Positions 28,864 to 53,677 of a stretch of DNA of 64,000 nt are shown here, in pieces. The notes beneath the pieces are model-generated. The model did not search any database and had not been told where the DNA came from. It saw nothing but the letters and a program-made list of their open reading frames with translations. Source of the stretch: Periplaneta americana (Eukaryota; Arthropoda; Insecta; Blattodea; Blattidae); assembly GCF_040183065.1 (NCBI RefSeq), contig NC_091131.1:102735330-102799329 (forward strand). The letters are read 5' to 3'. Both the position numbers and the translations under genes were made by a program. Within the stretch, counting starts at the first letter, position 1, and every line of letters begins with the position of its first letter.

Positions 28864-28956
28864 CCCAGGCATTGGAGGCGTCGTCCACCTCAACCTCCAC
28901 GAAACGCTCGGCCCTTCTTCTCGCTCTTCACCGAAGAAGAGTGTGAAGAGTTCTCG
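28864..28956 (+). CDS. Microexon A1 (31 codons)
   Basis: Acceptor TTTTCAG ends at 28863 and donor GTAGGTGCAAC begins at 28957. A branch-point-like 'gactaataataa' lies about 25 nt upstream of the acceptor and recurs before every A exon. Phase 0 translation starts 'PRHWRRRPPQPPRNARPFF' and ends 'TEEECEEFS': basic and proline-rich first half, acidic end. Trp is at codon 4. The frame is also open into both introns, so the splice sites, not the open frame, define it. Exon limits are supported by alignment with A2-A4. Confidence 0.7.
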
Positions 28957-29386
28957 GTAGGTGCAACATTTTACAGTACAGCTTTCTTTAAGATCATTAA
29001 AATATTGATTAATGTAATAATATGGAAAATTGTAATCCAAAAATGATCTACATAATTTCAAATATTAAATAAACAATGTCATGAATAATATATATTTTTA
29101 TATGTTTTATGTGTTTAAATGCTAAATATTTATTTACTTTAAGGTTCTTCTAAATTCGTTTTTCTTGGCAAGCAACATTTTCATTTTCACGTTTCCTCTC
29201 TCTGTTATCTTCCTGCGTGGTGAATAGTAAGGAAATTAAATTATTTATTATCGTTTCCGAAAATGCGCTAAATCTTGTCACTCCAGTTCCAGTTACATAT
29301 TTCTCAAAGAACACTCATGACGCAAAAACTTTCCAATTCACAATTCAATATCTGACAATTTGTGTATACCAGTACATTTTCTCGGA

Positions 29387-30136
29387 AAAGAGATAGGTTT
29401 TGAAGTAAATCCCGAAAAGACAGAATATATGATTAAGTCTCGTGACGAGAATATTGTACGAAATGGAAATATAAAAATTGGAAATTTATCCTTTGAAGAG
29501 GTGGAAAAATTCAAATACTTGCGAGCAACAGTAACAAATATAAATGATACTCGAGAGGAAATTAAACACAAAATAAATATGGGAAATGTGTGTTATTATT
29601 CGGTTGAGAAGCTTTTATCATACAGTCTGCTGTAAAAAAATCTGAAAGTTAGAATTTATAAAACAATTATATTACCGGTTGTTCTTTATGGTTGTGAAAC
29701 TTGGACACTCACTTTGAGAGAGGAACATAGGTTAAGAGTGTTTGAGAATAAGGTACTTAGGAAAATATTTGGGGCTAAGAGGGATGAAGTTACAGGAGAA
29801 TGGAGAAAAGTTAGCCTACACAACACCGAACTGCACGCATTGTATTCTTCACCTGACATAATTAGGAACATTAAGTCCAGACGTTTGAAATGGGCAGGCC
29901 ATGTAGCACGTATGGGCGAATCCAGAAATGCATATAGAGTGTTAGTTGGGAGGCCGGAGGGAAAAAGACCTTTGGGGAGGCCGATACGTAGATGGGAGGA
30001 TAATATTACAATGGATTTGAGGGAGGTGGAATATGATAGTAGAGACTGAATTAATCTTGCTCAGGATAGGGACCAATGGCGGTCTTATGTGAGGGCGGCA
30101 ATGAACCTCCGGGTTCCTTAAAAACCAGTAAGTAAG
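29387..30136 (+). mobile_element. RTE LINE 3' fragment in intron A1-A2
   Basis: Begins at 'EIGFEVNPEKTEYMIKSRDE' just after the YADD region and runs to the 3' end 'gttccttaaaaaccagtaag' with a TAAG-type tail. The C-terminal 'RRLKWAGHVARMGESRNAYR' is intact. The frame is broken near 29634, 29812 (a small insertion giving 'RKVSLHN') and 30047. It is inserted in the sense direction of the microexon gene. Confidence 0.87.
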
Positions 30137-30650
30137 TAATGCGTGTTATTATTCGGTTGAGAAGCTTTTATCATCCAGTCTGCCGTCAAAAAATCTGAAA
30201 GTTAGAATTTATAAAACAATTATATTACCGGTTGTTCTTTATGGTTGTGAAACTTGGACCCTCACTTTGAGAGAGGAACATAGGTTCTTAGGAAAATATT
30301 TGTGGCTAAGAGGGATGAAGTTACAGGCGAATGGAGAAAGTTACACAACGCAGAACTGCACGCAATGTATTCTTCACCTGACATAATTAGGAACATTAAA
30401 TCCAGATGTTTGAGATGGGCAGGGCATGTATATAGCACGTATGGACGAATCCAGAAATGCATATAGAGTGTTAGTTGGGAGGCCGGAGGGGAAAATACCT
30501 TTGGGGAGGGCGAGACGTAGATGGGAAGATATTAAAATGTATTTGAGGGAGGTGGGATATGATGGTAGAGACTGGATTAATCTTGCTCAGGATAGGGACC
30601 AATGGCGGGCTTATGTGAGGGCGGCAATGAACAAAAGCAAGTAAAGAAGT
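30137..30650 (+). mobile_element. Second RTE LINE 3' fragment, adjacent
   Basis: Starts at 'tgcgtgttattattcggttg', directly after the tail of the previous fragment, and runs to 'gcggcaatgaacaaaagcaa'. It has its own deletion (between 'REEHR' and the 'KIFVAKR' block) that the first fragment lacks, so it is not a simple recent tandem copy of it. Confidence 0.82.
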
Positions 30651-31129
30651 AGATATATTTTCCCGTAAATCATGCAGTACTAGATGGTTACGTAATATGT
30701 AACAATTACTAGACGTTTGTCTCATGCTATGTATTAACTGACCGCTATAGTATATCAAATTAAATACTCTGATGCGTTTTCCCCTACCTTTGCATTCAGT
30801 AAGGAAATAGGTCCGAACTCGTATGTGATGCAAAATTTATATGTTCTCGTACATACTGCAAAGTGGAAGGATTTAAATCATTGTTTATTTTGGATATGAA
30901 ATATTGCTTTTTTGTAACCCCTATTATTATTACATACATCCTTGCCAAATTTATTCCAATCCAGTCCAGTTTTAGACCACAATGGTCAGTTATGGTTTCA
31001 ATCCATCGTCGTGCTGCTTGCTCCATATTTGTCTGACTAAAAGAAACATTTGAGCATTTTCTTTAGCATTCTCTTGTGGTTAATTCAGAAAACATGTACT
31101 TTCCGGGATTTCATAGATTATTATTATTA

Positions 31130-32097
31130 CTAGCCGTACCCGTGCGCTCCGCTGCACCCGTTAGAAATAAATATAAAGTAATTACATAATTAAAATAGGA
31201 AATTTGATCCAAGGAACATTCGTGTTTGATAGAAGGATAAATCTGTTACTTAATTTAAATTGTATTAAAAAATTAAAATGCAATCATTTTGATCTAGAGA
31301 CCACCCATTTGGTCATCAAAATTATTTTAGGAAATACAGGAAACGAATTCCTATCAAGTTTTCTGTGCATAAGAAGCTATTTTAATCTTACCTGTCTTCG
31401 ATTCACTCAGAAGTTACTGTAATAACATTATAGCATTATGTCCATCTAGAGAAACTACACTTTCCAATGGTTAAATAATAATTAATTATACAAATCGGTT
31501 AATTTAGCTTCCGATATTACTTCATACAATCACAGAAACATTCTCTGTAGGCTATGTTTCATAGCTTTCGATTGTTTTTGTCCAAGGCCCCTTATAGATG
31601 GAGTCATTTGCTTTTTATTTCATTACACCGCCTTAGATTATGTTGTTATTGTAATTTTGAAACTCATTTATATCATTAAATATCAGTCGTATCAAAATTT
31701 TGCATGGAATAAAACTTATCGAAAATTATTTTTAAAGAAACGTTTGTTATGTAATATTTTTCATAAAAATTAATAATAAGGGAGATATTTCGATTTATTT
31801 AATTCAAGCCCCCTTATAACCCCCCTTTTAAATAAAATATTTTGAATACCATATAGCCTAAATTCTAAGTTACAACGAACTTAATTTATATTCCAATTGT
31901 CATAAAATCGGTTCAGCCATTATCACGTGAAAAGGTAACAAACATCCAGACAGACAGACAGACAGACATACAAACAAAAATTTCAAAAAGGCGATTTTCG
32001 GCTTCAGGGCGGTTAATTATATATGTTAGGACCAATTATTTTTGGAAAATCGAAAATTACCAGAAAAATTTTGGCTACAGATTTATTATTAGTATAG

Positions 32098-32098
<1 letters not shown>
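31130..32098 (-). mobile_element. Helitron-like non-autonomous element
   Basis: On the minus strand it starts TC ('tctatactaataataaatc', from 32098) and ends CTAG at 31130, preceded by the hairpin-forming 'gggtgcagcggagcgcacgg'. The host bases are A before and T after. These are the structural marks of Helitrons: 5' TC, 3' CTRR with a nearby hairpin, AT insertion site, no duplication. It is 969 bp with no Rep/helicase frame. A direct 'cagacagacagacagaca' run lies at 31951-31969. It splits the upstream flank of exon A2 from the exon. Confidence 0.65.

Positions 32099-32165
<67 letters not shown>
32099..32165. repeat. (ATT)n microsatellite
   Basis: TTA triplets between the Helitron-like element and the acceptor region of exon A2. 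Other A units have only a few triplets here ('ttattatattatagac'), so the tract expanded after duplication. Confidence 0.9.
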
Positions 32166-32166
<1 letters not shown>

Positions 32167-32195
32167 GACTAATAATAAAACGTGTATGTTTTCAG

Positions 32196-32303
32196 CCAGA
32201 GCACTGGAATCAGCGGGGACCAAGAACACAGATTTCCGCTTCCCTTAGCTCGTCTCTCAGCTCCTCCCTCACTTATCTATCTAGGGAAGAAGAGACTACG
32301 AAG
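32196..32303 (+). CDS. Microexon A2 (36 codons)
   Basis: Acceptor TTTTCAG at 32189-32195, donor AAG|GTAGGTGAAAC at 32304. Phase 0 reads 'PEHWNQRGPRTQ', a serine/leucine-rich middle 'SASLSSSLSSSLTYLS', and an acidic end 'REEETTK'. Trp is again codon 4. The order (Trp motif, basic, low-complexity Ser, acidic) is that of A1 and A4, although base identity within the exon is low while the flanks align well. Confidence 0.72.
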
Positions 32304-33094
32304 GTAGGTGAAACATTTTACAGTAGGCCTTTCTTTAAGATTATTAGAATATTGCTTAATGTAATAATATGGATAATTATAATCCTAAAATAATCAACAT
32401 AAATGGGAAATATTAAGTAAATGATATCATGAAATGGTATAATTTTATTACCTAAGTTATATGTTTTCTTCATACAAAAGAAAATGTTACATATTTCTTT
32501 AATTTAAAATTTTTTTCAAATCCGTTTTTGCTGGCAAACATTTTCATTTTTACGTTTCCTCTCTCTGTTCTAATCTTTTCCCGAGATGAATTATATGGAA
32601 ATTAAAGTTATTACAGTTTCTTAAAACTTGTCGTTATAGCCCGCATCACCGTTTTTGGCGTATGAAATAAGTAATGGGAACGTTAAGTGCGAGTGTTTTA
32701 CCTTTGCCGCAGTCAGTCTGACAACTGTGTTTGGCAAACGGCTGATGTGACGTTTATAGGAAGTGGTACCATTCTTAGCTGCACTAGCACCATGCTCAAA
32801 AACTGAGCATTATACTCGAGGACACACGTCAAAAACGCTGGCGCCAGCTATACAATAACTTACAGTTACAGATTTTTCAGAGAACATTCATGATGCAAAA
32901 ACTTTGCAATTCAGAGTTCAAGGTCTAACAACTTATGTTTTCTCGTAAATCTTGCAGTACTAGATTGTTTCGTAATACGCAACAATGTTTCCTTCACGCT
33001 ATGTATTAATTGACTCCTATGTATCAATCTATAAACTCGTGCATTTTTTCCTCTTCCTTTGCATTCAGTAAGTAAATAGGTCCAAACTCGTATA

Positions 33095-33770
33095 CTTACT
33101 TATTTACTGGCTTTTAAGGAACGCGGAGGTTCAATGCCGCCATCACATAAGCCCGCCATTAGTCCCTATCCTGTGCAAGATTAATCCAGTCTCTATCATC
33201 ATATCCCACCTCCCTCAGATCCATTTTAATATTATCTTCCCATCTACGTCTCGACCTCCCCAAAGGTCTTTTTCCATCCGGCCTCCCAACTAACACTCTA
33301 TATGCATTCCTGGATTCTCCCGATACGTGCTGTATGCCCTGCCCATTTCAAACGTCTAGATTTAATGTTCCTAATTATGTCCGGTAAAGAATACAATACG
33401 TGCAGTTCTGTGTTGTGTAACTTTCTTCATTCTCCTGTAATTTCATCCCTCTTAGCCCCAAATATTTTCCTAAGTACCTTATTCTCAAACACCCTTAACC
33501 TATGTTCCTCTCTCAAAGTAAGAGTCCAAGTTTCACAACTATAAAGAACAACCGGTAATATAACTGTTTTATAAATTCTAACTTTCAAATTTTTTGACAC
33601 CAGACTGGATGATAAAAGCTTCTCAACCGAATAATAACAGGCATTTCCCATATTTATTCTGTGTGTAATTTCCTCCCGAGTATCATTTATATTTGTTACT
33701 GTTGCTCCCAGGTATTTGAATTTTTCCACCTCTTCAAAGGATAAATTTCCAATTTTTATACTTCCATTTC
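33095..33770 (-). mobile_element. RTE LINE 3' fragment in intron A2-A3
   Basis: An antisense insertion flanked by a 15-bp target duplication 'gtccaaactcgtata' (33080-33094 and 33771-33785). It reads on the minus strand from '[20 protein letters not shown]' to the 3' end. The frame 33427-33804 is open over most of it. The clean duplication dates it as younger than the A-unit duplications, because the interrupted sequence is continuous in the other units. Confidence 0.92.
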
Positions 33771-34120
33771 GTCCAAACTCGTATATGTTGCAAAATTTAT
33801 ACACTAAAGGTTATGTGCTGGTACATGCTACAGAGTGGAATGATTTCAATCATGGATATGAAAGACTGCTTTATGTAATGCCCCATAAATATTACAGACA
33901 TTCTTAGCAAGCTTCTTCATCCAGTGCAGTTTTAGACCTCAATGGTCAGTTATGGTTTCGATCCATCGTCGTGCTGGTTGCTCCATAGGCCTACTTGTCT
34001 GTCTAGAAACATTATATTTGGGCATTTTCTTGTTGTTCAATCGGAAAACTAGTATTTTTCGGGATTTTCTATACTCTTATTATAATATTATAGACTAATA
34101 ATAAATTGTTATGTTTTCAG

Positions 34121-34219
34121 AGACGGTGCTGGGGCCTCTGGAACTGGTGTTGCCAGCTTTTCCGCCGTTGCCGAAAGGCAAAACGTCAAACCGGCTCCAA
34201 TATCGAAACCGGCCGTACA
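34121..34219 (+). CDS. Microexon A3 (33 codons)
   Basis: Acceptor TTTTCAG ends at 34120. The donor is the variant ACA|GTACGTGCAAC at 34220, aligned with GTAGGTGCAAC of the other units. Phase 0 reads 'RRCWGLWNWCCQLFRRCRKA' and ends 'GSNIETGRT'. Trp is at codon 4. This exon is unusual in having five cysteines and three tryptophans, and it lacks the acidic end of A1, A2 and A4. Confidence 0.68.
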
Positions 34220-34517
34220 GTACGTGCAACATTTTGCAGTTATTAAAATATTGATTAATGTAATAATATGGATATTAATTCTGAAATTATTAATATAATT
34301 TCAAATATTAAATAAGCGATGTCACGAAATGGCATATCTTTATTATCTATACGTTTTTCTGTATACACAAGGAAATATTTAATATATATTTGTAATTCCT
34401 TCCAAATCCGTTTGACAACCTGTGTTTACCAGTATGTTTTCTCGTTAATCATTGAGTACTAGATGATTACATAATGTCAAAATTAGGAAATCATATCTGT
34501 CTCATGCTTATGTATTA

Positions 34518-34518
34518 A

Positions 34519-34565
<47 letters not shown>
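34518..34565. repeat. (TA)n microsatellite
   Basis: Uninterrupted TA dinucleotides directly before the next LINE fragment, probably at its insertion point. Confidence 0.9.
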
Positions 34566-34568
<3 letters not shown>

Positions 34569-35437
34569 CTCTAGAGTATGCCATTAGGAAAGTCCAGGAT
34601 AACAGAGATGGTTTGGAATTGAACGGGTTACATCAGCTGCTTGTCTATGCGGATGACGTGAATATGTTAGGAGAAAATCCACAAACGATTAGGGAAAACA
34701 CGAGAATTTTACTGGAAGCAAGTAAAAAGATATGTTTGGAAGTAAATCCCGAAAAAGACAAAGTATATGATTATGTCTCGTGACCAGAATATTGTACGAA
34801 ATGGAAATATAAAAATTGGAGATTTATCTTTTGAAGAGGTGGTGAAGTTCAAATATCTGGGAGCAACAGTAACAAATATAAATGATACTCGGGAAGAAAT
34901 TGAACACAGAATAAATATGGGAAATGCCTGTTATTATTCGGTTGAGAAACTTTTATCATCCAGTCTGCTGTCGAAAAATCTGAAAGTTAGAATTTATAAA
35001 ACAGTTATATTACCCGTTGTTCTATACGGTTGTGAAACTTGGACTCTCACTTTGAGAGAGGAACATAGGTTAAGGGTGTTTGAGAATAAGGTGGTTAGGA
35101 AAATATTTGGGGCTAAGAGGGATGAAGTTACAGGAGAATGGAGAAAGTTACACAACACAGAACTGCACGCATTGTATTCTTCACCTGACATAATTAGGAA
35201 CATTAAATCCAGACGTTTGAGATGGGCAGGACATGTAGCACGTATGGGCGAATCCAGAAATGCATATAGAGTGTTAGTTGGGAGACCGGAGGGGGAAAAA
35301 CCTTTAGGGAGGCCGAGACGTAGATGGGAAGATAATATTATAATGGATTTAAGGGAGGTGGGATATGATGATAGAGAATGGATTAATTTTGCTCAGGATA
35401 GGGACCAATGGCGGGCTTATGTGAGGGCGGCAATGAA
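34566..35437 (+). mobile_element. RTE LINE 3' half in intron A3-A4
   Basis: Starts just before the intact catalytic box '[17 protein letters not shown]' near 34636. One frame (34767-35552) then runs open for 261 codons through 'RRLRWAGHVARMGESRNAYR' to the end of the element. It is the best-preserved C-terminal region of the family in the window. It ends 'gcggcaatga', without the usual 'cctccgggttcctt' tail. Confidence 0.88.
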
Positions 35438-35806
35438 AAATAATATCAATATAAATACTCTGATGTATTTTTTTCCCTTCCTTTGCATTCAGCAAGTAAA
35501 TAGTTATGTAAAAGACTATGTGCTAGTACATGCTGCAAGGTGGAATTATTAAAATCACGATTTATTGTGGATATAAAAGACTGCTTTTGTGTAATGTCCA
35601 TCATTATTACATATATCCGTACCAAATTTCTCCCTCAACGGTCAGTTATGGTTTCGATCCATCGTCGTGCTGGTTCTTCCATACCTGTCTCACCAGAAGA
35701 AACATTTGGGCATTTTCTTTGTCATTCTTTTGTTATGTACCTTCTAGGATTTCCTATACTCTTACTATTATATTGTAGACTAATAATAAAATGTGTATGT
35801 TTCCAG

Positions 35807-35890
35807 GCATGGCGCTGGAGATCGTGCCGTCGACGTCGCTCCCCCAGCCCTTCCCCCAGTCTCTCCTCCAGCGAAGAGGATAATACTTCG
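35807..35890 (+). CDS. Microexon A4 (28 codons)
   Basis: Acceptor TTTCCAG ends at 35806; donor TCG|GTAGGTGCAAC begins at 35891. Phase 0 reads 'AWRWRSCRRRRSPSPSPSLS' then 'SSEEDNTS': an Arg run, SP repeats and an acidic end. Trp is at codon 4 (also at codon 2). The 60 bases of intron after the donor are almost identical to those after A1, yet the exons are hard to align. Confidence 0.72.
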
Positions 35891-36019
35891 GTAGGTGCAA
35901 CATTTTACAGTACAGCCTTCTTTAAGATTATTAAAATATTGATTAATGTATATGGAAAATTGTAATCCTAAAATTATCAACATAAAACGTAAATGAATCC
36001 CCTTCTTTCCAGAAATGAT

Positions 36020-36562
36020 AATTTTGAGGACGGTTCCAAACAACTGGCCACAGAAAATTGGTAACTGGGACAATTGGCCACATAAAATTGGTAATAGGGA
36101 CAATTCGCCACAGATAGACATTTCGCCACAAATAGACAATTTGCCACAGTTAGACAATTTAGCACAAATAGGCAATTTGCCACACTGAGGTACAAAGATA
36201 AATCCATGACTTCCAGAAGCTCTATATTGTGCGAATGGATACAGAGATTAATAATTGTGACTTCCACTAAGTATGTGAATTGCTATGTACATATAAATTT
36301 GGCTTCAAAAATGTCCTGCTAGGTTGTGGCCTACAGCTCTCAAGTACCGGATGACGGTGCCTTCTGCCTTGTACCGCGGGTATTCTTCAACTGTGTCGAT
36401 GTACTTCCGCTTCTTTTTGGTAGGAGAATGACCACCTTCCAATCTCTATATATATCTGTCCACTTCTTCCACTTCCAACTGCAGTTGCTCCAGCACGTGA
36501 TACAAGGAAGGATGCGCTTTCCCCATTAATAGGTTCAATCTCCTGTGCCACTGCCAGTCAGG
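36020..36562 (-). mobile_element. MULE fragment: transposase C terminus and repeat-bearing end
   Basis: On the minus strand 36562-36297 reads 'PDWQWHRRLNLLMGKAHPSL', 'YHVLEQLQLEVEEVDRYI', a stop, 'RLEGGHSPTKKKRKYIDTVE' and finally 'VIRYLRAVGHNLAGHF', matching the C-terminal region of FLYWCH/MULE transposases. Beyond the stop, 36030-36190 is a degenerate tandem of 'gacaatttgccacaaata', the same motif as the ends of the MULE at 3786-6592. It is a 5'-deleted relic in the intron after A4. Confidence 0.6.
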
Positions 36563-36698
36563 AGAGCTGCATATTATACTAACTAGGCCACTAAAGCGTC
36601 ATATAATTATACTAAGAAAACTATTAAAAATCAGTGGAGTATTTAGTTAAGACATATCTTTCAAGCATAAATTATTACAAGTTTATTTTATTTTGTAG

Positions 36699-36758
36699 GA
36701 AACGGAGAGAGAGATTATCCTCCGGGGACTATTAACACCTGTCTATCACCCCATGGAT
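36699..36758 (+). CDS. Microexon B1 (20 codons)
   Basis: Acceptor TTTTGTAG ends at 36698; donor GAT|GTAAGTAACTC begins at 36759. Phase 0 translates 'ETEREIILRGLLTPVYHPMD', open throughout. The upstream flank ('caagcataaattattac') and the start of the downstream intron ('gtaagtaactcttcaatg') match those of B2 and of B3/B4. The exon has no similarity to the A exons or to the other B exons. Confidence 0.7.
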
Positions 36759-36850
36759 GTAAGTAACTCTTCAATGTACAGAGAATAATATAGAGTATGA
36801 TGCTTAGAGGTAGGGTATATGGATCGTATGCGGAGACTAAAATGAAGATA

Positions 36851-37248
36851 CAGTAGTGGCAAAAAAAAAAAACCGGACCGACCCTTGTAGCTGATTTCAG
36901 AGTTATATATTCAAATTTTGCTAGTCACAAAACACATCCATCTTGTATAATTAATTGTAACAATGAAATTTATTGCATTTGTTCGATTCTTACCGTCTTC
37001 TGTTTCCTTCAGTGCCTCAAACTTACAGACGAAAAAACTTTGAGAGTTTTATTTTCATCTGGCATCAATATTACATTTCTACCTCTATTCGCAAAGATAA
37101 CTTGCTTATTTTTACATTAAATAGCAGTACCGGTACATACCTTTGGCTTCACTATCCATATTGAAATTACCACAGTTTGACACAATACACAGCACAGGAT
37201 TCTTTTGTATCAGCTACAAGGATCGGTCCGGCTTTTTTGCCACTACTG
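36851..37248. mobile_element. Tc1/mariner-type MITE, 398 bp
   Basis: Ends 'cagtagtggcaaaaaaaaaa' and the complement of 'cttttttgccactactg', bounded by TA at 36849-36850 and 37249-37250. Inner terminal regions 'ccttgtagctgattt' and 'tcagctacaagg' also pair. The interior differs from the related copies at 27734 and 52568 and lacks their tRNA-like module. It truncates the conserved part of the intron after B1. Confidence 0.85.
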
Positions 37249-37639
37249 TACAAAATAGGAAAGATTGGAGAATGCTGGGTTTGCAGTGAAAGGCTATGAA
37301 TGAATCATTATAATAAAGAGACATTTTCAATAATTTTACGATAAACATATTTATATTATGAAAAAGTGCATGAATATTTTCTGAGTTGTATGTGGTTCTT
37401 TCCATTCGTTTCATAAATTTTAATGAACCACTAGGCTACTTCACATATGGCATCAAGAGAAAGATCATGGATTTGAGAATACAACGAAGAATTTCTAGCA
37501 CCGTTAAGGCCAAATGTACAAAGACATGTCAGTTACAAGTGGCCAATATAACTTACTAGTTTAAGATCGCATGTTCAGAATCCAGCTACTGCAGTCCATT
37601 GAAAACTGTGGTAAAAGATGAAGATCATTCAAGTAAAAT

Positions 37640-37700
37640 AGTCCATGTCTACTAAGAAGATTAATAAAAGTAGTGGGATATTAAATTTAGTTCACTGATA
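37640..37700 (+). other. Ghost of another B-unit upstream flank
   Basis: The stretch 'ctaagaagattaataaaagt' + 'agtgggatattaaatttagtt' resembles the flank upstream of B1 (36596-36650), B2 (about 38568-38610) and B3 (about 42700). No exon follows, because a non-LTR element begins at about 37700. It probably marks an additional B unit whose exon has been lost. Confidence 0.45.
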
Positions 37701-38535
37701 CCTATTGTTGTCATCGTCGTCTAACTGCATACTTCTTGGTTCGGTTCATAACCATGTCTTCTGGCTTCCCACTTCCCACTTAGGGTGGGGACTTCTCAAA
37801 TCAAGGCGACGAAAAACCAGACTCACCGCATTGTTCAAGGCACAAATGGGACACAAAGCATGGACCGATATCAATGCTAGATTAGCAACACCATCATACT
37901 TAGGAAGGACTGATCATATTAGGAAGTTTAAATGTAGAAAACAAAGAACGGACGTGGCAAAATTTTCCTTTGTTAACCGCACAATAGTAGACTGGAACAG
38001 CTTACCTGCGGCAATCTTTCAGGGTGGTCCTCTTAAAATCAATACATTTAAGGAAAGGTTGGGAAGATTAGACTGAAAATTTAATTGGAGGTGCAGTGTA
38101 ATTATTTAAGTTGTCATGTAATTAATGGAGTTGATATATAATTAATTAAGTTGATATGTAATTAATTAAGATATGTAATTTAGTTGATACGTAAATAAAT
38201 TAAGGTGATATGTAATTAATTAAGATGATATGTAATTAAGTTGGTATGTAATTAATTAAGGTGATATGTAATTACTTAAATTGGTAATAGATGGGTGAAG
38301 TAGAAGTACTTATAAGTTAGATTTACTTTTGCTTATCGTAGGCGTTATTATAGAATAGTTTTTATTTATAGTCCTAGGTTTATTGCATCTACTATTTATA
38401 GATTACCGGTACGTTTATTTTATTTTATTTTATTTACGTTTATTTTATTTTATTTCACGTAATTGTAATTATTGTATATTATATATCACGCCCACCGGGT
38501 GTATACCCAATTGTAGTGTTAAATAAATACATATA
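37701..38535 (+). mobile_element. Non-LTR element 3' end (CR1/L2-like), copy 1
   Basis: Codes for the C-terminal tail of a reverse transcriptase polyprotein (37795-38076): 'KAWTDINARLATPSYLGRTD', 'KQRTDVAKFSFVNRTIVDWN', 'SLPAAIF'. The 3' UTR follows, with irregular repeats of 'gatatgtaattaattaag' (38110-38280). It ends in 'caccgggtgtatacccaatt' and an AATAAATACATA tail. The clade assignment is by motif memory and is uncertain. The same 3' end recurs at 42056. Confidence 0.75.
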
Positions 38536-42625: not shown

Positions 42626-42658
<33 letters not shown>

Positions 42659-44426: not shown

Positions 44427-44471
44427 ATTGAGACCACGTACATGCAAGCTTACGTGTACGAACGCCGAGTC
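44427..44471 (+). CDS. Microexon B4 (15 codons)
   Basis: Acceptor TTTTTATAG ends at 44426; donor GTC|GTAAGTAATTC begins at 44472. Phase 0 gives 'IETTYMQAYVYERRV', open. Like B3 it is 45 nt. Transposons press on both sides: a foldback ends 45 nt upstream and a MITE begins 41 nt downstream. Confidence 0.7.
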
Positions 44472-44512
44472 GTAAGTAATTCTTCAATGTCCATAGATCA
44501 TAGTGCATAATC

Positions 44513-44691
44513 ACAGTGTAGTACTCGTATATACAGTCACGAAGCTCAATATGTAATAAATACGCATACATAGATAGTTGCTAACCACTAGCATCGCCTC
44601 ATTACAGACAATGCGAAATAGTACCTGCACAGTCTATTGTTTCTAGCAATCTCAACAACTCAAGCTTCGTGACTGTATATACTAGACTGTG
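44513..44691. mobile_element. MITE, 'CACAGTCTAG' family, copy 3
   Basis: Inner inverted repeats 'gtatatacagtcacgaagct' and 'agcttcgtgactgtatatac'. Target duplication GCATAATC (44505-44512) versus GTATAATC (44692-44699), one mismatch. The left end is slightly rearranged ('cacagtgtagtactcg'). It is inserted in the conserved intron just downstream of exon B4, where sequence similarity to the B3 intron resumes after it. Confidence 0.75.
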
Positions 44692-44699
44692 GTATAATC

Positions 44700-45911
44700 C
44701 TTAGAGGCTATCTGCAATAGTTATAGGACTGAATTTTCATATGAAATGAAATCCTTGAAAAATATTTTTTAAACTAGATTTAGAACAGAGATTTTGATAT
44801 CAGTTTCGGATTATATACTGTACTTCAAGAACTTTTATTTTATTTCACCCACACAAAGTTGCTATGAGTTATTGTCTCCTTTTTATCCACATCCCTTGGT
44901 TCATAATCATTCATTGGCACATGCTCTTCAAAAATGTCTCATTTCAATCATGAGTTACGAAGCTTTAAAATTCAGATTTGTCAAAACTTTAAATTTTGAG
45001 TTGTTTCCCTTTTCAACTGGGTCATCGAATTTGGCTTGGATAACAGGAGTCGCAATAATAATTACGAAATCTGCCTACAATATAAATCAGTATCAACAGC
45101 TAGACACGCATTAACTATAAGGTAGGCCTATCATGCAACCATTGTCTTCTGGATAAGAAATTATACATGTGATCAAAGTGGATCCAGCAAGGGTGAATGA
45201 AACATTTTTTGCTTACAACGCAACCCAGCATTACTTTTTAAACCAAACGCTTTCATGTGACACAGTTTGAAGGGCTCTCAAGTAGGAAATGAAAGCATAT
45301 TATAAAACTAGAAGGTTCAAATGTAAACACGAACAGAAAAAAATGTATTTTCTTAACTGTTCACCATTATTTCACCACAGTTTCCCCTTAAAAGAAAATG
45401 TTCTTTTTCCAACTTTACTTCAGTCCGTTACGGTAACGATAATACTGTAACCTGCTGGGAAACGGCCTTCACTCTACCAAGACTGCTCGCCACCTGGATG
45501 GACGTAACTCCACTGGCAACCAGGAGTGCAGCATGGGTTCCCATTCCCCCTTGTCCTCTATACTTCTGTCTTAATCAGAATTTTTCCGTCTTGAACATAT
45601 TAGAGATTTGAAATTATTAATATTTTTGCAGCCCGGTATTTACCAGAAGTCATTTCAGTGGAAGGCTTCCACTTTTCAGCAACTTTTTTATATTATTTAT
45701 TTAATAATAACATATCAAACTGAAAACGTTACATGAAAGTACCCCGAAAGAGCAAAGCTCGTGTTCGGAGACAGTTCCGTTTTGATAAAATAACTTGAGA
45801 ATGACGCAAAATTTTACGTGATTAAAATTAAAAATGTTGGTACCAGAGATTACACATAATTCACAAAAATAAGTCTGTGTTGTTCCTAAAATAACATTTA
45901 TAGTTATTACA
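44700..45911 (+). other. Intron B4-B5, first part
   Basis: The conserved B intron blocks continue to about 44970 ('agaacagagattttgatat', 'gagttattgtctcctttttat', 'cataatcattcattgg'). A 'tttttgcag' near 45624 followed by a short open stretch was considered as an exon and rejected for lack of a donor. Confidence 0.5.
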
Positions 45912-46650
45912 CAAGGGTTGGGGCATAAGTCGTGGCAACTATTTTTTTTTAAGATAAGTGTTGGTATCACAAAATGTTATATGTCGCACGGAAGGCGTGC
46001 AGTCATAGTGTGTGTCCACAACACAAGATGGCTCTATGTTCGTCTGTAATAGAACAGAGAGTGATGTTAAATCAGTTGCCAGTGTAGCGTCACATTCTAG
46101 TATATACAATCACGAAGCTTGAGTTGATGAGGATACTAGGAACAATAGACTGTGCCAGTACTGTTTCACATTGTATGTGATGAGGCGATAGTAGCGATCC
46201 TAGTGGTTAGCAACTATCTATGGATGCATATTCTCTATGTATTGAGCTTCGTGACTGTATATACTAGACTGTGGTAGCGTCGTGCAGAATGGATCTAACT
46301 CGTGCTGAACAACGCTCGTATATCAAAATAGCCGTTCTCCATGGGAGAAATTCTAAAGAATGCCACAGAGAGTTTGTAGAAGCTGTCAGGAATAATGTCC
46401 TTTCATACCGGACAGTCGCGAGATGGGTAGCTAATTTGGGGGCCTTTAGAACGAGTATGTGTGCTGTAATCATTCTGGCAGAGGACCCCTGTAATGTTAT
46501 GGCAACGACCGTAACAAACATAAGAAAAATATTGGCATGTTGTTAAATGTCCGTACATTTCGTCCATTCCTTGTCCTTTCATCTGTATATTTCACATTTT
46601 ACACCCACGCTCGAATTCTCACAAAAAGAAATAGTTGCCATGACAACCCT
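45912..46650 (+). mobile_element. Internally deleted mariner-type element
   Basis: The left end 'caagggttggggcataagtc' with 'gtggcaactattttttttt' matches the complement of the right end 'aaatagttgccatgacaacc' + 'ctgg'. The coding part keeps only the N-terminal helix-turn-helix: 'MDLTRAEQRSYIKIAVLHGR', 'ECHREFVEAVRNNVLSYRTV', 'ARWVANLG' (46289-46440), after which the family sequence is lost. The catalytic domain is absent. The MITE at 46092 has inserted between the left end and the start codon. Confidence 0.7.
46092..46273. mobile_element. MITE, 'CACAGTCTAG' family, copy 2
   Basis: Ends 'acattctagtatatacaatc' and the complement of 'gactgtatatactagactgt'. Perfect direct repeat GTAGCGTC (46084-46091 and 46274-46281). 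It interrupts the mariner-type element 15 bp before its start codon. Confidence 0.82.
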
Positions 46651-48578
46651 GGTTCTTGAGAGTAGAAGATAGACAGAAACATAGGCTACATCAATCACAA
46701 ATATAAATACTATGTAGACTAATATTTAAACACCACTATAAGATACTTAAGAAGTAGCTGCTTTAAGATGATAGTAATAAAGTTAATAACAATAATACTA
46801 GTAATAATTGAGATGATTTATACCATAATTTCAGAGTGAAAAAGGATGATGTTGAGATTGGTGATTGGTTAATACTAACTTATTATTTGTGTAATCAGTG
46901 GCAAATCATGTTGATATAGGCTTGTAACAAAGATGAGATTGAGAGAAATAATATACTTAGGGAAGAAATAAACTTGCTTTACAAAGCATAGCACATATAA
47001 AGTAGGGAAGTTTGTCATATGCGTTGTTTAATCCTGGATTTGAAAATTTCATTATTAAAAGTAGCCAATTTTCGATTAAATTGTTTTATGCTCGACCATG
47101 CGGAAATGTAGTAATTATACACCTGGTAGTAGCTCTTTAATGCACCTCATTAAAGTACACCTATTCATTAAAGTTCAGGTGTTCAGCGAATGACAAGTCA
47201 CCTTTGTACCGTTATAAAACCGCAAGTATCGATTATTCTCGGATATGTAATCGAAAGACAATTAGCGAAAAATCACGGAGGCTGGAAATCCAATACTGTC
47301 GCAGAAGGTTATGTTCTGTTACTATAATAATTAGCGTTAATTGTAAATAATATTCAAATAAATTCAATTTGTCATCTCGTTTTTCAATTCTAAATCAATT
47401 TCCAGGTTATATCAGACTAATGTTCATCTTATTCTCTATCAAGGTCAATGACATTCGGCTTCGGAAAAAATCAATACTTTCGCGTCTGCGCACATCTCAC
47501 AATTCAGGTCAGTTCGCACATAACCATAACATGACCTAATTTTGAATAATTTCAAGTTAGAAATATGGTCGAGCATAAAAAGTCGTATGAAACTTGCCTA
47601 TAATGGTAATTAAGACGCTCGTATGAAAATTATGAAACACGCTTGCGCTCGTTTCATAAACAAACATACTTGCGTCTTAATTACTACCATTATAGGCCCG
47701 TTGCATAATGTACTATTATCAAATTATATAGATGTGTACCATAATTTGTACTATGTAAGAAAGCAGTAGATGTGAAGCATTTAGGTTCAACTAAAGTAAG
47801 AAATTAATTTGTAAAGTAAACAGTATCACGTGACTGAAATGAGGCTTGATTGGCCGCAGCTTAGCGCCACCGATTCTCAGCACGTGATCCCGCCCACTGC
47901 TGTACATTCCGTTTCATGTTAAAAATTTCTCGTTACTCGTCAAAGTAGACCTAGCGTCACTACTATGCATTCGTTTGCTTAGGAAACAATTACTGCCAAC
48001 TTAATTAAATTATTTCAAACTTTCGTGTAAGGCCAATCGCTGGCGGACAAAGGTGTTATTCCTCTGTTACGTTAACCACATTCACTGAGGATGCAGAAGC
48101 CATACTATTATTTGCTTACCTATGGGGACAAACTCAAGATCAAGTGACGATAACTTGTTACAGGAACATATTACCTTCGTATGGTTAATACTCTTCGTTT
48201 TTTATCCGCTTTCGTAGTAAATAAAATATAAAAGTGTCCTTTCTTTTCATAATGTTGTACGTATGAGTTACGTTATAAGCTTTATCGCTCTAGTAGGCCT
48301 ACTAACTAAAATTTAAATTTGCTTCTAAAATAAATACAAAGTTATGATCCTCGAATACGGAACTATATTTTCCTGCGTCGTGTGTTTCGACTACATACGA
48401 GGCAATGACGGGTATGTTAGCCACGAGCCTGTGTTTACATTAGGATTATTCTAACTCCGAAAATATTATGAGTATTGGATTTATTAATATATATTAAATG
48501 GTTAATAAAATGCAGTAGAATATATTATAGTCCACTGAGATTTTTAACATGATTTACAAGTTTCATTTCTTTTCACAG
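46651..48578 (+). other. Intron B4-B5, last part, with a small foldback
   Basis: Mostly unannotated. A foldback of about 105 bp lies at 47594-47698, with 'cctataatggtaattaagac' mirrored by 'gtcttaattactaccattat'. 'tttatgctcgacca' near 47088 and 'tggtcgagcataaaa' near 47567 are a further inverted pair, so 47088-47700 may be one larger old foldback element. Confidence 0.5.
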
Positions 48579-48647
48579 ATCTACGGTGTCCAGTTCGGGC
48601 GTGTAGTAGACCGTCCATATGTAGTCTTGCTTGTCACACGACGTCCG
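48579..48647 (+). CDS. Microexon B5 (23 codons)
   Basis: Acceptor TTTTCACAG ends at 48578; donor CCG|GTAAATAACTC begins at 48648. Phase 0 begins 'IYGVQFGRVVDRPYVVLLV' and ends 'TRRP', a hydrophobic beta-like stretch. The intron repeats the B pattern later ('acactgaattttcacatgat', 'aacaaggattttcatatcat' near 49000-49075) after a 300-bp insertion of unknown origin. Confidence 0.7.
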
Positions 48648-49347
48648 GTAAATAACTCTTGGTTATATATAGATAATAGTAATTTATATACAGGACATTC
48701 ATTTCAAAATTTCATTAAATTTAAGTTAAACAAAGCACGTCAATTTAGATATTGAGGGGAAAGTTTAAAACCAGAATTAATTGTCATTTGAAATTTCAAA
48801 GAGTGGGTGAGAATCGAGAGGATTAAAACTATAACGCAATTAACACTCGTTTTAACTTATTCCTAAATATCTAAATTGACACTTTTTTGTTTAAATTTAA
48901 TGTAATTTAATTCAAATAGTACATAGTTATTTAGACTTGGAAGTTTTGAAATGAAAGCCCTATATATTGCTTGTATTCTTTCCATAATCGTTGTAACACT
49001 GAATTTTCACATGATGGGCCGAAATATTTATTGAAATCAATTTTTTAAGCAGGGAACAAGGATTTTCATATCATTTCGTAGTTGCTAGCCGTCCATTATA
49101 CAACTTGATTTTGTTTCACTTACACAAGTAAACAGATCTTATTGTTTTCGTTTTATCCACACTTCTTAATTCATATAATCATTCATTGACAGAGGTATTG
49201 GCTTAATTCACAATTTGCCATTTGAAAGTAATTTGATCGAACTTTTTTTTTTTTTTTTGAGATTACTAAATTTAAAGTTTTTGTTGCATATAACTCGTGA
49301 ATTAACATAACTTCTACCAAATTATATAAAAGTATAGCCTACTTATA

Positions 49348-49589
49348 ATTAAGGTTTCGGCCAGTGTACGGGACCGGTGCCCACCCAGCATCGTGATGCA
49401 CTTGGGGAGCTATGATAGGTAGCCAAATTCGGTTGCGAATGCCAGCTATAACCGCTGGGGGCATCATCGTGCTAACCACACGATACCTCCATTCTGGTTG
49501 GATGATCGTCCACCTCTGCTTCGACATGTGGGCATGAGGCCAGCAGACGGCTGGTCGGTCTAGGCCCTTCAAGTGCTATAGCGCCATGG

Positions 49590-49650
<61 letters not shown>
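49348..49650 (-). repeat. SINE, 'GTGGCG...' family, with (ATT)n
   Basis: A reverse-orientation copy of the SINE at 41108. 'ccattctggttggatgatcg' and 'tgctaaccacacgatacctc' match the complement of that copy. The ATT tract at 49591-49650 is on the same element side as the AAT tract of the other copy, so the microsatellite travels with the SINE end. Confidence 0.8.
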
Positions 49651-49651
<1 letters not shown>

Positions 49652-49739
49652 GGTAATGAGATAAAATTTTCACAAAAATACTCTTCATTTTTTAGCGCTA
49701 AAATAAAAAGATGATCAAATTTGTCAAAAATCGACTCCT

Positions 49740-49885
49740 TTCAGTAGTACATCACCTTAATGGATTGATGGAAAACCACGGGAAAAACATGAAACAGGTA
49801 ACTTGTCCCAACCAGGATTTGAACCCGTGCCCTCTCGTTGCAGTGTCACATGTGCTAACCATTATCCACAGCGATGAACCTCACG
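49740..49885 (-). repeat. tRNA-like SINE fragment
   Basis: The minus strand contains an A-box-like 'ggataatggttagcacatgt' and a B-box 'gcacgggttcaaatcctggt' at tRNA spacing, followed by 'gttgggacaagttacctgtt'. No acceptor-stem pairing could be made. Confidence 0.55.
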
Positions 49886-50184
49886 AAAAAAGTGCATACA
49901 TTTTTAAGAAGTGGCATCTGAGAGCAGAATTAATAAAAATCACAATTAGTTTTATTAATGTTTGAACATTGAAGAAATTATACTTTTTTACAAATTAAGA
50001 AATCAAGAGTATGGCATTACTAATGCTCCATTGCACAATATGCAATAAAGATAAAAAAATATTTTTTTAAGAAATAAGTTTTTCACTAAGAAAAAAATAA
50101 AGAGAGCAAAATAAGTTTAATTTTTTTAAGTGTTTATAAGAAAAGATTGAAATTAAAAACTTGTACTTATGATATTGATATGTA

Positions 50185-51293
50185 CAGGGACATTATTCTA
50201 TTTTTCTAATATTTCTAATATTAACCTGGCTATACCTTTGGATCAACGATTAAGAACCGGAAACACCGTTTGCTACCCCCTTCCACGACTGGAGTTCGAT
50301 GATACTGGCGTAATATACAAACAAATCACTTTACTAGGTATAGGAGGGAAGAAAAGTAGTTCATCCATTTACGTAAACTAGGAAATATCGCGATTTTGAG
50401 TTTGATAATTTTCATTAGGTTTTTGTTTAATCAAAATACAGTACAGTATTAACAATGAGAGTTTTTACTCACGAACTGAGCTATCCATGCGGACGTATTC
50501 ATTATGCAGTGTATATTATGCCGTCTACAGCACATTAGCGTACACTATAAATAATGAAGTTAAATTGAAAAATAATCATAATATGGATATTTAAACACAT
50601 TTTTGAAAATGGTGACCGTTCATTTCGATACAGGCTTCAGTTCTAATGTACATATTATCGCACTATAGACTATTTTACGTAATTTCAATTACCAGGTTCG
50701 TACTTCGTACCAGTAACTCATGTTGAAATAATTCTGTACCTATTCTATAAAAGAGACCTTACGTACTGTAAATTCAATCTTCACTTCTGCCCGATCCGAA
50801 AAGATAAAATTACTCAGACATGCTGTCTACTGTCCGTCCAAGTGGTTATGTCGTAGGGTCGTAGAAAGGGGGGAAATCACGTGACAGTTAATTACTTAAC
50901 GAGGCCCTCTTATTTAAGTTATTTTAAACAGTTGTATAATATTACGTAGACGTCCAATTCCTAACAGAAATTAATATTCTCAGAAAAGAGCTAAGACAGC
51001 CCAGCCACTAGCATTTACAGAGAGGCGAATAGAAGCAAGTGGGGAAAACCAGGATGCGACGTAGGCCAATATAGAAAATGATGCAATATTGAAAGCTCTT
51101 TCGTCACTGGAAAACGCGAACATATTTTTGGGACGTACTGTTTACTATGACCGTAAGGCTACTATGACTGTATATGCGGTCTTGGATCTGTGTGGAGGAC
51201 GGTTGAACTTCATTAGTAGAAGGGGTGGGAGTGAAGTACATTAAAAAACTCACGTACAATAAAAATTGAAGTAAAAATAAAGTGATGTCCCTG
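50185..51293. mobile_element. Tc1-type non-autonomous element, 1.1 kb
   Basis: Ends 'cagggacattattctatttt' and the complement of 'aaaataaagtgatgtccctg', bounded by TA (50183-50184 and 51294-51295). The left 330 bp are shared with the element that starts at 63560. No transposase frame remains. Confidence 0.78.
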
Positions 51294-51581
51294 TATATTC
51301 TGTAAAAATTTCAACTCTGCAGCTAAAAAATTGTGGAAAAAAAAAGTTTGCAGATCCCTGGTCTACACTATTATATTGTCACGTTGTCGGTCATGGTTCG
51401 AATCCATCCCAGTTAGGTCTGGAATATTTCACTGATACTTGTGGCGTATAAAGTCGCAGTTGCGATATTTTTGGGGTTCTCCCATTTCGCCATCTTGGGC
51501 ATGAACATAATTAAAGTCAAATCAAGATTTTCAGGTATAACTCCCTGTAAAGTTGATTTGAATAATTTCGAGGGAAAAACT

Positions 51582-51656
51582 GTTCCGTAGCCGGGTATCG
51601 AACCCGGGACCTTTGGTTTAACGTACCAACGCTCTACCACTGAGCTACTCGGGAAC
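51582..51656 (-). tRNA. tRNA-like sequence 1 (probably SINE-borne)
   Basis: 75 nt starting 'gttcccgagtagctcagtgg'. The D arm GCTC/GAGC, anticodon stem TTGGT/ACCAA and T arm CCGGG/CCCGG all pair. The acceptor stem pairs only in part and is the weakest of the three. The loop ACGTTAA would place GTT at the anticodon, but base 33 is C instead of T. The loop anomaly, multiplication and non-tRNA tail argue for a repeat rather than a working gene. Confidence 0.4.
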
Positions 51657-51867
51657 TCTAACCGACACCGATCCAATTTTTCCCTCTATATCCACAGACC
51701 TCAAAGTGGGCTGACAACCGTCAAGCAACCAACTTCGAGTGCACACTAACTCCGTGTGACTTAAATTGTGGTTTTCTGTTAACGAACAGTGACGTGTATT
51801 ATGCAAATCAAGATTTTCAGGTATAACTCCCTGTAAAGTTGATTTGAATAATTTCGAGGGAAAAATT

Positions 51868-51942
51868 GTTCCGGAGCCGGGTATCGAACCCGGGACCTTT
51901 GGTTTAACGTACCAACGCTCTACCACTGATCTACTCGGGAAC
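51868..51942 (-). tRNA. tRNA-like sequence 2 (probably SINE-borne)
   Basis: The same 75-nt fold as copy 1, with 'gttcccgagtagatcagtgg' at the 5' end: a C-to-A change breaks one D-stem pair. The acceptor stem is GTTCCCG against CCGGAAC with one mismatch. Confidence 0.35.
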
Positions 51943-52155
51943 TCTAACCGACACCGATCCAATTTTTCCCTCTATATCCACAGACCTCAAAGTGGGCTGA
52001 CAACCGTCAATAATACACGTCACTGTTCGTTAACAGAAAACCACAATTTAAGTCACACGGAGTTAGTGTGCACTCGAAGTTGGTTGCTTGACGGTTGTCA
52101 GCCCACTTTGAGGTCTGTGGATATAGAGGGAAAAATTGGATCGGTGTCGGTTAGA

Positions 52156-52230
52156 GTTCCCGAATAGCTCAGTGGTAGACCGTTGGTACGTTAAACCAAA
52201 GGTCCCGGGTTCGATACCCGGCTCCGGAAC
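52156..52230 (+). tRNA. tRNA-like sequence 3 (probably SINE-borne)
   Basis: Plus-strand copy, 'gttcccgaatagctcagtgg' to 'gctccggaac'. The 'gtagaccg' after the D loop replaces GAGCG and breaks one D-stem pair. The T arm and anticodon stem are intact. Confidence 0.35.
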
Positions 52231-52567
52231 AATTTTTCCCTCGAAATTATTCATAATTAAAGTCATTGTTTACTCTATTCAATTACATATCCATATCATT
52301 TCTCTCATTACAAGTTCTCGGGTTATTTCTGAGTTCATAAATATTCTCGGGCAGAGTTTTGTAAACCTAATAAAATGTAGCCTACCTGTAATCAGTAGGG
52401 ATCGTACTTAATCCCAGAAGGCTACAAGACGCACGTCCATATAGTAAGCGAAGTACTTGACTGAAGGCTCACGCGTCTCTTGTTTCGTCAAGTAGGGCAG
52501 AACAAAACATGGACCACTTTAACAATATTACACTAATATTTACAATTAAAATTATTTACACTATGTA

Positions 52568-52945
52568 CAGTAGTGGCAAAAAAAAAACCGGACCGATCCT
52601 TGTAGCTGATTTCAGAGCCTTGTTCACTCCAGAGCACGATAGACTGGTAACTAAGACTTTCGTGGTTCGAATCCTGCCTGGGCAGGAAACTTTTTTTGTT
52701 CCTTATTCCCAATACTTTTCGATTGCAGCGATATTTTACTACTTAATTAACTTATTCCCAGAACATGAATTTTACCAGCTATCGAAAAGTATTAGGAATA
52801 AATTTGAACAAGGAACAAAACAAAGTTTCCTTCCCAGGCAGGATTCGAACCACGAAAGTCTTAGTTACCAGTCTATCGTGCTCTGGAGTGAACAAGGCTC
52901 TGAAATCAACTACAGGGGTCGGTCCGGTTTTTTTTGCCACTACTG
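52568..52945. mobile_element. Foldback mariner-type MITE with mirrored tRNA-like arms
   Basis: Ends 'cagtagtggcaaaaaaaaaa' and its complement, within TA (52566-52567 and 52946-52947). Arms of about 150 bp are nearly perfect inverted copies, each containing 'actttcgtggttcgaatcct'. Compared with the copy at 27734, the left arm has been duplicated in inverted orientation to replace the right arm. Confidence 0.85.
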
Positions 52946-53557
52946 TACACTAAAACATGCTGTTTTTAATATTTACACTAGGCCTATCGCCAACCAAACT
53001 TTACAAGGGATACTCAAAATGAAAAAAAGGAATTCACAGAACTTCAGTATTTCTTGATTTATTCTGATACACTCTAATCGTAGATATGAGATAGAACAGA
53101 TCAGTCATTTAACTGTGAGAAAGACAATGGGCTGTTTTCGTGATAGATTGGGGCATTGGCTGTGAATAGTTCTCATTTTGAGCATTTGTTAAAAAGTTTG
53201 ATTCGTGATAGTGTTTTGTTTATTTTTATGACCTATTTCACATGATTTTACGTATTTTATTTATTTGTCTCAAGTTTAATAAAGAGTTAAAAGATACGAA
53301 ACGGGTAAAATTTAATGGAGACTGAATTAAAATAGAATGCCATTTTGAAAAAAAAATGAAGTTTACTGTCAAAATCTATATGCCTGAATAACGTTTTTCG
53401 AACACTGGTTTATCTCTAACAGCTTTTGTGTAAAACTCTTTCCTGCCAAATTAACATTTAAGACATTAAGAGCAATATTCCATACTTAATGAACACACTA
53501 CATAATTCAGCTATGTATTTTCGACATTATTTTAATTAGTTACTTTTCTTTCAACAG

Positions 53558-53677
53558 GTGCATCCAGGTCGCCGAGATATAATTTATCCTGACGACAGGG
53601 ACATTATTGATATGGGTCTGGGCCCACGGAGACCTTCTATAACAATAGAACGGTTCACGGTCTACTACGACCACAGG
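53558..53677 (+). CDS. Microexon B6 (40 codons)
   Basis: Acceptor CTTTCAACAG ends at 53557; donor AGG|GTGAGTACTGAG begins at 53678. Phase 0 begins 'VHPGRRDIIYPDDRDIIDMG' and ends 'SITIERFTVYYDHR', open. It is the longest exon, and the only one in the B series with a GTGAGT donor. The B intron blocks follow ('aaggatgttgatattagttt', 'aatcattcactgacatagg'). Confidence 0.72.

What the first reader, a model, noticed from the sequence alone, without database searches (positions are those of the whole stretch)
28864..53677. An undescribed microexon-array gene
Ten short exons (93, 108, 99, 84, 60, 66, 45, 45, 69 and 120 nt) lie in line on one strand. All are multiples of three, all are open in phase 0, and all have proper acceptors and donors. 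They form two series of tandem duplications. No known protein family comes to mind. Comparable gene plans are the aphid bicycle effector genes and schistosome micro-exon genes, whose many small symmetric exons feed secreted, fast-evolving proteins. A similar role here is only an inference.
Basis: partly seen in the sequence, partly recalled or inferred. Interest (0 to 1): 0.93.

Follow-up and report, generated by a model that had tools for sequence, protein, structure and literature searches.

The report
Cockroach microexon gene in mobile unit
In what appears to be the American cockroach, a real but uncharacterised gene built of many tiny interchangeable exons belongs to a family, so far seen only in this species, whose distant members differ more in their exons than in the introns between them, and this copy seems to have been carried to new chromosomes inside a 64-kilobase jumping segment.

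Summary
In detail: all ten exons exist as listed (AG/GT edges, open, phase 0), well above chance. The genome fits Periplaneta americana PAMFEO1_priV1. The gene is not wholly undescribed: a public 150-aa 'uncharacterized protein' joins a first exon (36351-36419), E6-E10 and a last exon (56170-56208); E1-E5 are not in it. No Pfam, PDB or non-Periplaneta relative was found. (1) It is one member of a family: loci picked through intron similarity carry an open 42-45-nt exon in 10 of 10 fetched cases; a splice-site pattern gives 29 genome matches (control 0), all multiples of three. Between distant members exons, synonymous sites included, mostly differ more than adjacent introns. E10 is under purifying selection (dN/dS below 1 in 21 of 21 pairs), and recent copies show no exon excess, so protein-level positive selection is not shown. 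(2) The copy lies in a ~63.7-kb unit, ~98% identical on four chromosomes, with MITE-type ends and 6-7-bp target duplications in both copies read at both edges. Bicycle-gene and schistosome-MEG membership fails (phase 0, no CYC, exons of 45 nt or more). Function is inferred only.

The parts
17013..64000 (+). part inside the window of the ~63.7-kb mobile unit (continues to C15:102816043, plus ~11 nt of edge)
   Evidence: ~98% matches on C12, C17, C8 begin at 17011-17014 with different flanks; right edge
17013..17268 (.). left edge: 256-bp MITE with 25-bp inverted ends CCCTAGATCATATATGTAACAGATA; preceded by AGGAAA
   Evidence: 35 of 40 scored places match this part only, 2124 first-look candidates
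28864..28956 (+). exon E1, 93 nt, PRHWRRRPPQPPRNARPFFSLFTEEECEEFS
   Evidence: pattern found in 13 of 13 close copies, match length implying 93 nt in 10 and 84 nt in 3
32196..32303 (+). exon E2, 108 nt
   Evidence: stop in the C17 copy
34121..34219 (+). exon E3, 99 nt (weakest donor, GTACGT)
35807..35890 (+). exon E4, 84 nt
36351..36419 (+). first exon of the public model (ATG, 23 aa, donor GTAGGA), joined there to E6
36699..36758 (+). exon E5, 60 nt; not in P0001; an E5-like stretch by eye in P0005
38657..38722 (+). exon E6, 66 nt
42872..42916 (+). exon E7, 45 nt, FPYSEAILNILVQQY
44427..44471 (+). exon E8, 45 nt
48579..48647 (+). exon E9, 69 nt; in P0001, absent from the P0002 and P0003 models
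53558..53677 (+). exon E10, 120 nt
56170..56208 (+). last exon of the public model with stop (AQSSRRPDPASQ*)

Best explanation
The window holds a member of an orphan gene family, so far seen only in P. americana. Its protein is put together from phase-0 cassette exons of 42-120 nt. SHOWN: exons, frames, a public partial gene model, paralogues with the same splice edges and frames, purifying selection on E10, and, between distant members, mostly more difference in exons than in flanking introns. SHOWN FOR THIS COPY: it lies in a ~63.7-kb unit with MITE-type ends and short target duplications, present at ~98% identity on C15, C12, C17 and C8 (the left edge also on C14). INFERRED: one pre-mRNA is spliced so that any cassette can be kept or skipped without a frameshift; exons multiply by tandem duplication; introns, alike between copies, serve as homology for unequal exchange and gene conversion, which keeps introns young while old, different exons are retained; a MITE transposase acting on two MITE-type ends moved the whole gene. 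INFERRED, weak (about 0.3): the product is a flexible binding protein in a biological conflict (immunity, reproduction or genome defence).
For: Public protein P0001 (150 aa) matches E6-E10 exactly, on a contig of C15's length. E10 paralogues: 8 of 9 fetched have an open 120- or 111-nt exon with the same AG and GTGAGT; dN/dS 0.09-0.41, above 1 in 0 of 21 pairs. E7: 10 of 10 fetched loci of the 17 found by intron match alone have an open 42-45-nt exon, and 2 of 2 fetched of the 7 nearer paralogues. Pattern: 29 matches, control 0; 28 of 45 nt, 1 of 48 nt; 13 of the 14 distinct exon sequences translated, 13 open in frame 0, the 14th is open as L045. E1 pattern: 13 matches, control 0. Divergence. 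Mobile unit.
Against: No positive selection: dN/dS below 1 in E10 (21 of 21 pairs; the 7 window pairs have saturated dS) and E2 (3 of 3, 0.23-0.54). In the recent copies exons are not clearly faster: substitutions C12 1/789 against 28/3656 in flanks, C17 7/789 against 25/3473, C8 5/789 against 33/3715. In E10, 4 of 28 pairs (all with L042) have synonymous difference below one or both intron sides. In E2 of close copies the exon differs more than the next 100 nt in 2 of 4 and less in 2 (L006, L008). E1-E5 have no direct model support in this copy. Both outer edges were read in only 2 copies, with one base missing at the C12 left and C15 right ends. The 8 other close copies are not among the 40 scored left-edge places. 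No RNA-seq seen.
Confidence: 0.7

Rival explanations
1. The introns are not homogenised but constrained: they carry long splicing-control sequence, so exons merely look fast.
For: Strongest conservation lies at the acceptor (pairwise mismatch 0.06-0.16 in the last 15 nt) and the first ~10 nt of the donor (0.00-0.11); in distant E7 types the downstream 35 nt are only 0.63 identical.
Against: Similarity runs 276 nt upstream between E1 and E3 (78%) and 329 nt downstream between E1 and E2 (76%) (queries were cut at the exon edges). An exon-free stretch 259-589 nt beyond E10 matches near the C5:147.75 locus at 83%, but its second part (query 282-497) is a dispersed repeat, and only this one of the nine E10 paralogue loci was among the 40 scored places.
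Confidence: 0.25
2. Selection on the spliced RNA: small RNAs target the mature mRNA of a mobile gene family, so exons change at all codon positions while introns stay.
For: Between the window and seven C3/C5 E10 exons, synonymous codons differ at 50-67% of shared residues while introns differ by 10-18% (one side of one copy 27%); several exon types are multi-copy.
Against: Recent copies show no exon excess; no small-RNA data; old exons with young introns give the same picture.
Confidence: 0.1
3. The dispersed copies are ordinary segmental duplications, and the shared edge is a coincidental MITE.
For: 8 of 13 close copies are not listed with the left edge; three C2 copies lie within ~160 kb.
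Against: C15, C12, C17 and C8 start at the same base (C12 one base later) with different flanks; AGGAAA and TTATAG stand on both sides in C15 and C12.
Confidence: 0.15
4. The ten exons are decayed remnants or chance open stretches.
For: One stop in E2 of C17; E3 donor weak.
Confidence: 0.03

Closest known systems
Aphid bicycle genes (PMC9168663; passages seen)
   Same: Large lineage-restricted family, many small internal exons of one phase, gene structure better kept than sequence
   Different: Bicycle exons are almost all phase 2, with CYC motifs and many signal sequences; here phase 0, no CYC, no signal peptide evident by eye; here also carried in a mobile unit
Schistosome micro-exon genes (PMC4671649; passages seen)
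   Same: Mostly symmetric small exons that can be skipped in frame; orphan proteins
   Different: MEG microexons are under 36 bp between long end exons, the 5' one with a signal peptide; here 45-120 nt and no signal peptide evident by eye
Snake venom phospholipase A2 genes (recalled; only a search listing seen)
   Same: Introns more conserved than exons in a gene family (recalled)
   Different: No microexon array; secreted enzyme; positive selection reported (recalled), which was not found here
MITE-bounded or composite transposons (recalled) and giant transposons (PMC6431247; passages seen)
   Same: Two related ends move a long stretch with cargo
   Different: Enzyme unknown here; 64 kb with a whole multi-exon gene

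Membership tests
Bicycle genes | internal exons phase 2 | tested here: not met
   10 of 10 exons phase 0
Bicycle genes | CYC motif | tested here: not met
   absent from the E1-E10 translation
Bicycle genes | N-terminal signal sequence | tested here: inconclusive
   no predictor available; none evident by eye in P0001, P0005
Schistosome MEGs | central microexons under 36 bp | tested here: not met
   shortest listed exon 45 nt, shortest relative read 42 nt
Schistosome MEGs | symmetric exons | tested here: met
   10 of 10
Schistosome MEGs | signal peptide in long 5' exon | tested here: inconclusive
   model first exon has 69 coding nt; no predictor available
MITE-bounded composite transposon | matching inverted ends | tested here: met
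   left CCCTAGATC (CCTAGATC in C12); right edge CTAGGG in C12, GATCTAGG in C15; one base short at two of the four ends
MITE-bounded composite transposon | target-site duplication | tested here: met
   2 of 2 copies read at both outer edges: AGGAAA, TTATAG (6 bp; 7 if an edge G is counted); C17 and C8 right outer edges not reached
MITE-bounded composite transposon | transposase of the MITE family | not tested
   the hAT-type and P-type genes inside were not linked to these ends
Any Pfam or PDB family | profile match | tested here: not met
   P0001, P0002, P0003, P0005: best Pfam E 0.16, below cut-off; PDB none at E 1 or less

The most novel reading that the evidence does not exclude
The hypervariable microexon genes are themselves passengers or parts of a set of mobile units, and the exon excess of divergence at all codon positions, synonymous ones included, records selection or mutation acting on the spliced RNA (small-RNA escape, or rewriting of exons from a cDNA) rather than on the protein alone. 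I lowered this from 0.15 because recent copies show no exon excess.
Probability: 0.1. Interest if true: 0.9.

Novelty: new variant of a known kind. Interest (0 to 1): 0.7.

Why it matters
It adds another animal lineage, besides aphids and schistosomes, with a family of symmetric small-exon genes, in a species with a good genome. It gives a simple tool, intron-anchored search, that finds relatives whose coding sequence is past recognition. It offers a case of a whole multi-exon gene moved in a 64-kb unit within an insect genome. The excess of synonymous over intron divergence between distant members makes a testable choice between gene conversion, intron constraint and RNA-level conflict.

Tried and rejected
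A transposase gene as owner of the array: the P-element-type sequence at 59.58-61.0 kb has its own THAP-like start (by eye) and runs through several frames, so it is a nested remnant. A THAP exon at 18740 ends in phase 1 and has a stop, so it would not join a phase-0 array directly (by eye; the Pfam match of its second part, 20.9 bits, is below the cut-off of 23.9). A TTAA (piggyBac-type) unit: unit flanks are not TTAA. I first read the edge as a P-superfamily duplication; the MITE search replaced that. Exon-only hypermutation as an ongoing process: not supported by recent copies. Structure prediction: pLDDT 38.6 from five sequences; no fold search made. Relatives in other species: none listed, which see only proteins sharing short words and of similar length; several of the 12 hits match unrelated tails of P0002/P0003. 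Other cockroaches and termites could not be searched as DNA. Paper searches that gave nothing to the point (listings only).

Not done: RNA-seq, long-read cDNA, small RNA. The searches of window:48400-48760 and of the pattern TTTYTTTTTATAG..GTAAGTAAYT did not complete. The script stopped with an error after printing the exon table; its other part was run again. A note of mine counts 9 window-type exons among the 29; the list gives 8.
Full report
Where the window lies. The window is G000:C15:102735330-102799329 of a 3,231,669,367-base genome in 91 contigs. Size and 91 scaffolds fit P. americana PAMFEO1_priV1, GCF_040183065.1 (PMC12774602, passages seen). Proteins that match the array are named Periplaneta americana, and one lies on a contig of exactly C15's length.

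The observation. All ten exons are present with AG and GT edges, lengths divisible by three, open in phase 0. The plus strand of 27-57 kb has 13 candidates where 20 first-order Markov sequences give 1.7 (sd 1.3); the minus strand has 5 (matrices recalled, thresholds set on the listed exons, so the comparison favours them; the minus strand also exceeds the Markov mean). With a combined score of at least 14, 9 of 11 hits in 17-64 kb are listed exons. The public protein P0001 (150 aa, 'uncharacterized protein') reads MTVPSALYRGYSSTVSMYFRFFL, then E6, E7, E8, E9, E10, then AQSSRRPDPASQ; its outer exons are window 36351-36419 and 56170-56208. E1-E5 are not in it. I did not see what evidence the model rests on. 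A second model, P0005 (122 aa, contig of C3's length), starts with arginine/serine-rich and acidic stretches like E1-E4, then what looks by eye like E5, E8 and E10. That is the only hint that both series share a transcript.

Close copies. The block 28800-31000 has 13 close places including the window (C15 x2, C12 x2, C17, C8, C14, C13, C2 x5) at 93-100% identity; 4 of the 13 match only its first ~1.3 kb. E10 and E7 give the same 13, and so does a pattern for E1 (13 matches, control 0; by match length 93 nt in 10, 84 nt in 3). In C12, C17 and C8 all ten exons were compared: 29 of 30 open. E1 and E2 were also read in L005-L008: 8 of 8 open, with E1 of L008 9 nt shorter in frame. In these three recent copies exon substitutions (1, 7 and 5 of 789) lie below, slightly above and below the flank rate (28/3656, 25/3473, 33/3715).

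Distant family. E10 has 9 further relatives at 70-76%, spaced 46-52 kb apart in three pairs on C3 and C5. I fetched all nine: 8 have an open exon of 120 nt (7) or 111 nt (1) with the same acceptor and a GTGAGT donor; L034 does not. E10 is under purifying selection: dN/dS 0.09-0.41, median 0.28, above 1 in 0 of 21 pairs among the seven 120-nt relatives; against the window dS is saturated. E7 has 7 relatives beside the E10 ones and 17 more hits that match only the intron before the exon; 16 stop at its last base, one runs a base further. I fetched 10 of the 17 and 2 of the 7; 12 of 12 have an open 42-45-nt exon; L050 needs the second of two AGs. A pattern of this acceptor and donor with 40-50 nt between gives 29 genome matches and none for the reversed control; 28 are 45 nt and one 48 nt. 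There are 14 distinct exon sequences; 13 were translated and are open in frame 0 in 13 of 13 cases, against 2 of 13 and 10 of 13 in the other frames; the 14th is L045, open. Exon types in the 29: the window type 8, ELVQ 7, VKFV 7, ELYQ/ELYY 4, three single ones. Of the 29, 6 lie on C15:175-182 Mb, 3 on C13:39-43 Mb and 6 on small contigs C19-C26.

Exons against introns. E1-E4 (6 pairs): upstream 55 nt 0.80-0.86 identical, downstream 95 nt 0.58-0.87, exons 0.42-0.57 against 0.45 (sd 0.03) for shuffled exons. E7 types (8 types, 28 pairs): upstream 22 nt 0.81, exon 0.48 (shuffled 0.44, sd 0.05), downstream 35 nt 0.63; exon below upstream in 28 and below downstream in 26 pairs. E5-E10 within the window: exons about at the shuffled level, flanks above it. 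E10, window against seven C3/C5 copies, substitutions only: introns differ by 0.13-0.18 upstream and 0.10-0.27 downstream, synonymous codons in 10/20 to 16/24 shared residues, amino acids in 13-20 of 40. Over all 28 E10 pairs the synonymous fraction exceeds both intron sides in 24; the other 4 all involve L042 (counted). So the excess is not an amino-acid effect alone. Results against a general rule: E2 of close copies differs more than the next 100 nt in L005 and L007 but less in L006 and L008; recent copies show no exon excess; in distant E7 types the downstream intron, ungapped, is as different as the exon after about 10 nt. An exon-free stretch beyond E10 matches near C5:147.75 at 83%, partly within a dispersed repeat.

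The mobile unit. C12, C17 and C8 copies match the window from 17011-17014 onward at about 98% with different flanks before it. The first 256 bases are a common MITE with 25-bp inverted ends. The match between C15 and C12 ends at C15:102816043, 63,702 bases from the left edge. In C15 the edge reads CTAGATCTAGG then AGGAAA, in C12 CTAGGG then TTATAG; the same six bases stand before the left edge of each. In C17 and C8 the right edge runs on into a second MITE-like end, whose outer limit I did not reach. The full left edge is listed in 5 copies (C15, C14, C12, C8, C17; 40 places scored); the right edge is complete in C15, C8, C17, C12 and to within 3 bases in C13, C15:179.7 and C12:7.9. So the unit reached at least four, probably five sites, while the other eight close copies are probably older or native loci. 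The enzyme is unknown. A hAT-type gene (19502-21573, minus; Pfam DUF4371) is split between two frames here and open over 690 aa in C17, but nothing ties it to these ends.

How it most likely works. The cassettes are in one phase, so skipping any keeps the frame: the P0001 model lacks E5, and P0002 and P0003 lack E9. The product is short and without a recognisable fold. I favour gene conversion and unequal exchange keeping introns alike while distinct exons are retained (about 0.4), over intron constraint (0.25), RNA-level conflict (0.1, lowered from 0.15) and other causes. A role in a conflict is an inference from lineage restriction and exon turnover only.

Comparison. It works like bicycle genes and MEGs in gene plan and is a member of neither. 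Novelty: new variant of a known kind, with the mobile setting and the synonymous excess between distant members as the unusual parts.

Noticed in passing
window 19502-21573 (-); L017 5838-7907 (-): hAT-type transposase (Pfam DUF4371) inside the unit, split between two frames in the window copy, open over 690 aa in the C17 copy.
   Followed up: partly
window 59579-61029 (+): P-element/THAP9-type transposase remnant spread over several frames (TNP-like RNase H N-terminal domain, E 6.8e-9).
   Followed up: partly
window 18740-18995 (+): THAP-like exon with one stop and a phase-1 donor near the left edge of the unit (Pfam match of its second part below the cut-off).
   Followed up: partly
window 56232-57536: Tandem array of 160-bp then 141-bp units just behind the last exon of the public model; a minus-strand frame is open across part of it.
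   Followed up: no
window 63095-63688 and L029 589-1222: Open frames that look by eye like pieces of a Tc1-type transposase.
   Followed up: no
L017 8291-9445 (-): A 385-aa open frame that looks by eye like another hAT-type protein, in a stretch of the C17 copy that does not align to the window.
   Followed up: no
window 29415-30640, 33096-33776, 34746-35440: Three fragments, about 90-97% alike, that look by eye like a non-LTR retrotransposon, among the array introns; similar pieces are dispersed in the genome.
   Followed up: no
C15:175-182 Mb and C13:39-43 Mb of the genome: Several microexon types occur near each other (9 of the 29 pattern matches), as if these regions were nests of the family.
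   Followed up: no
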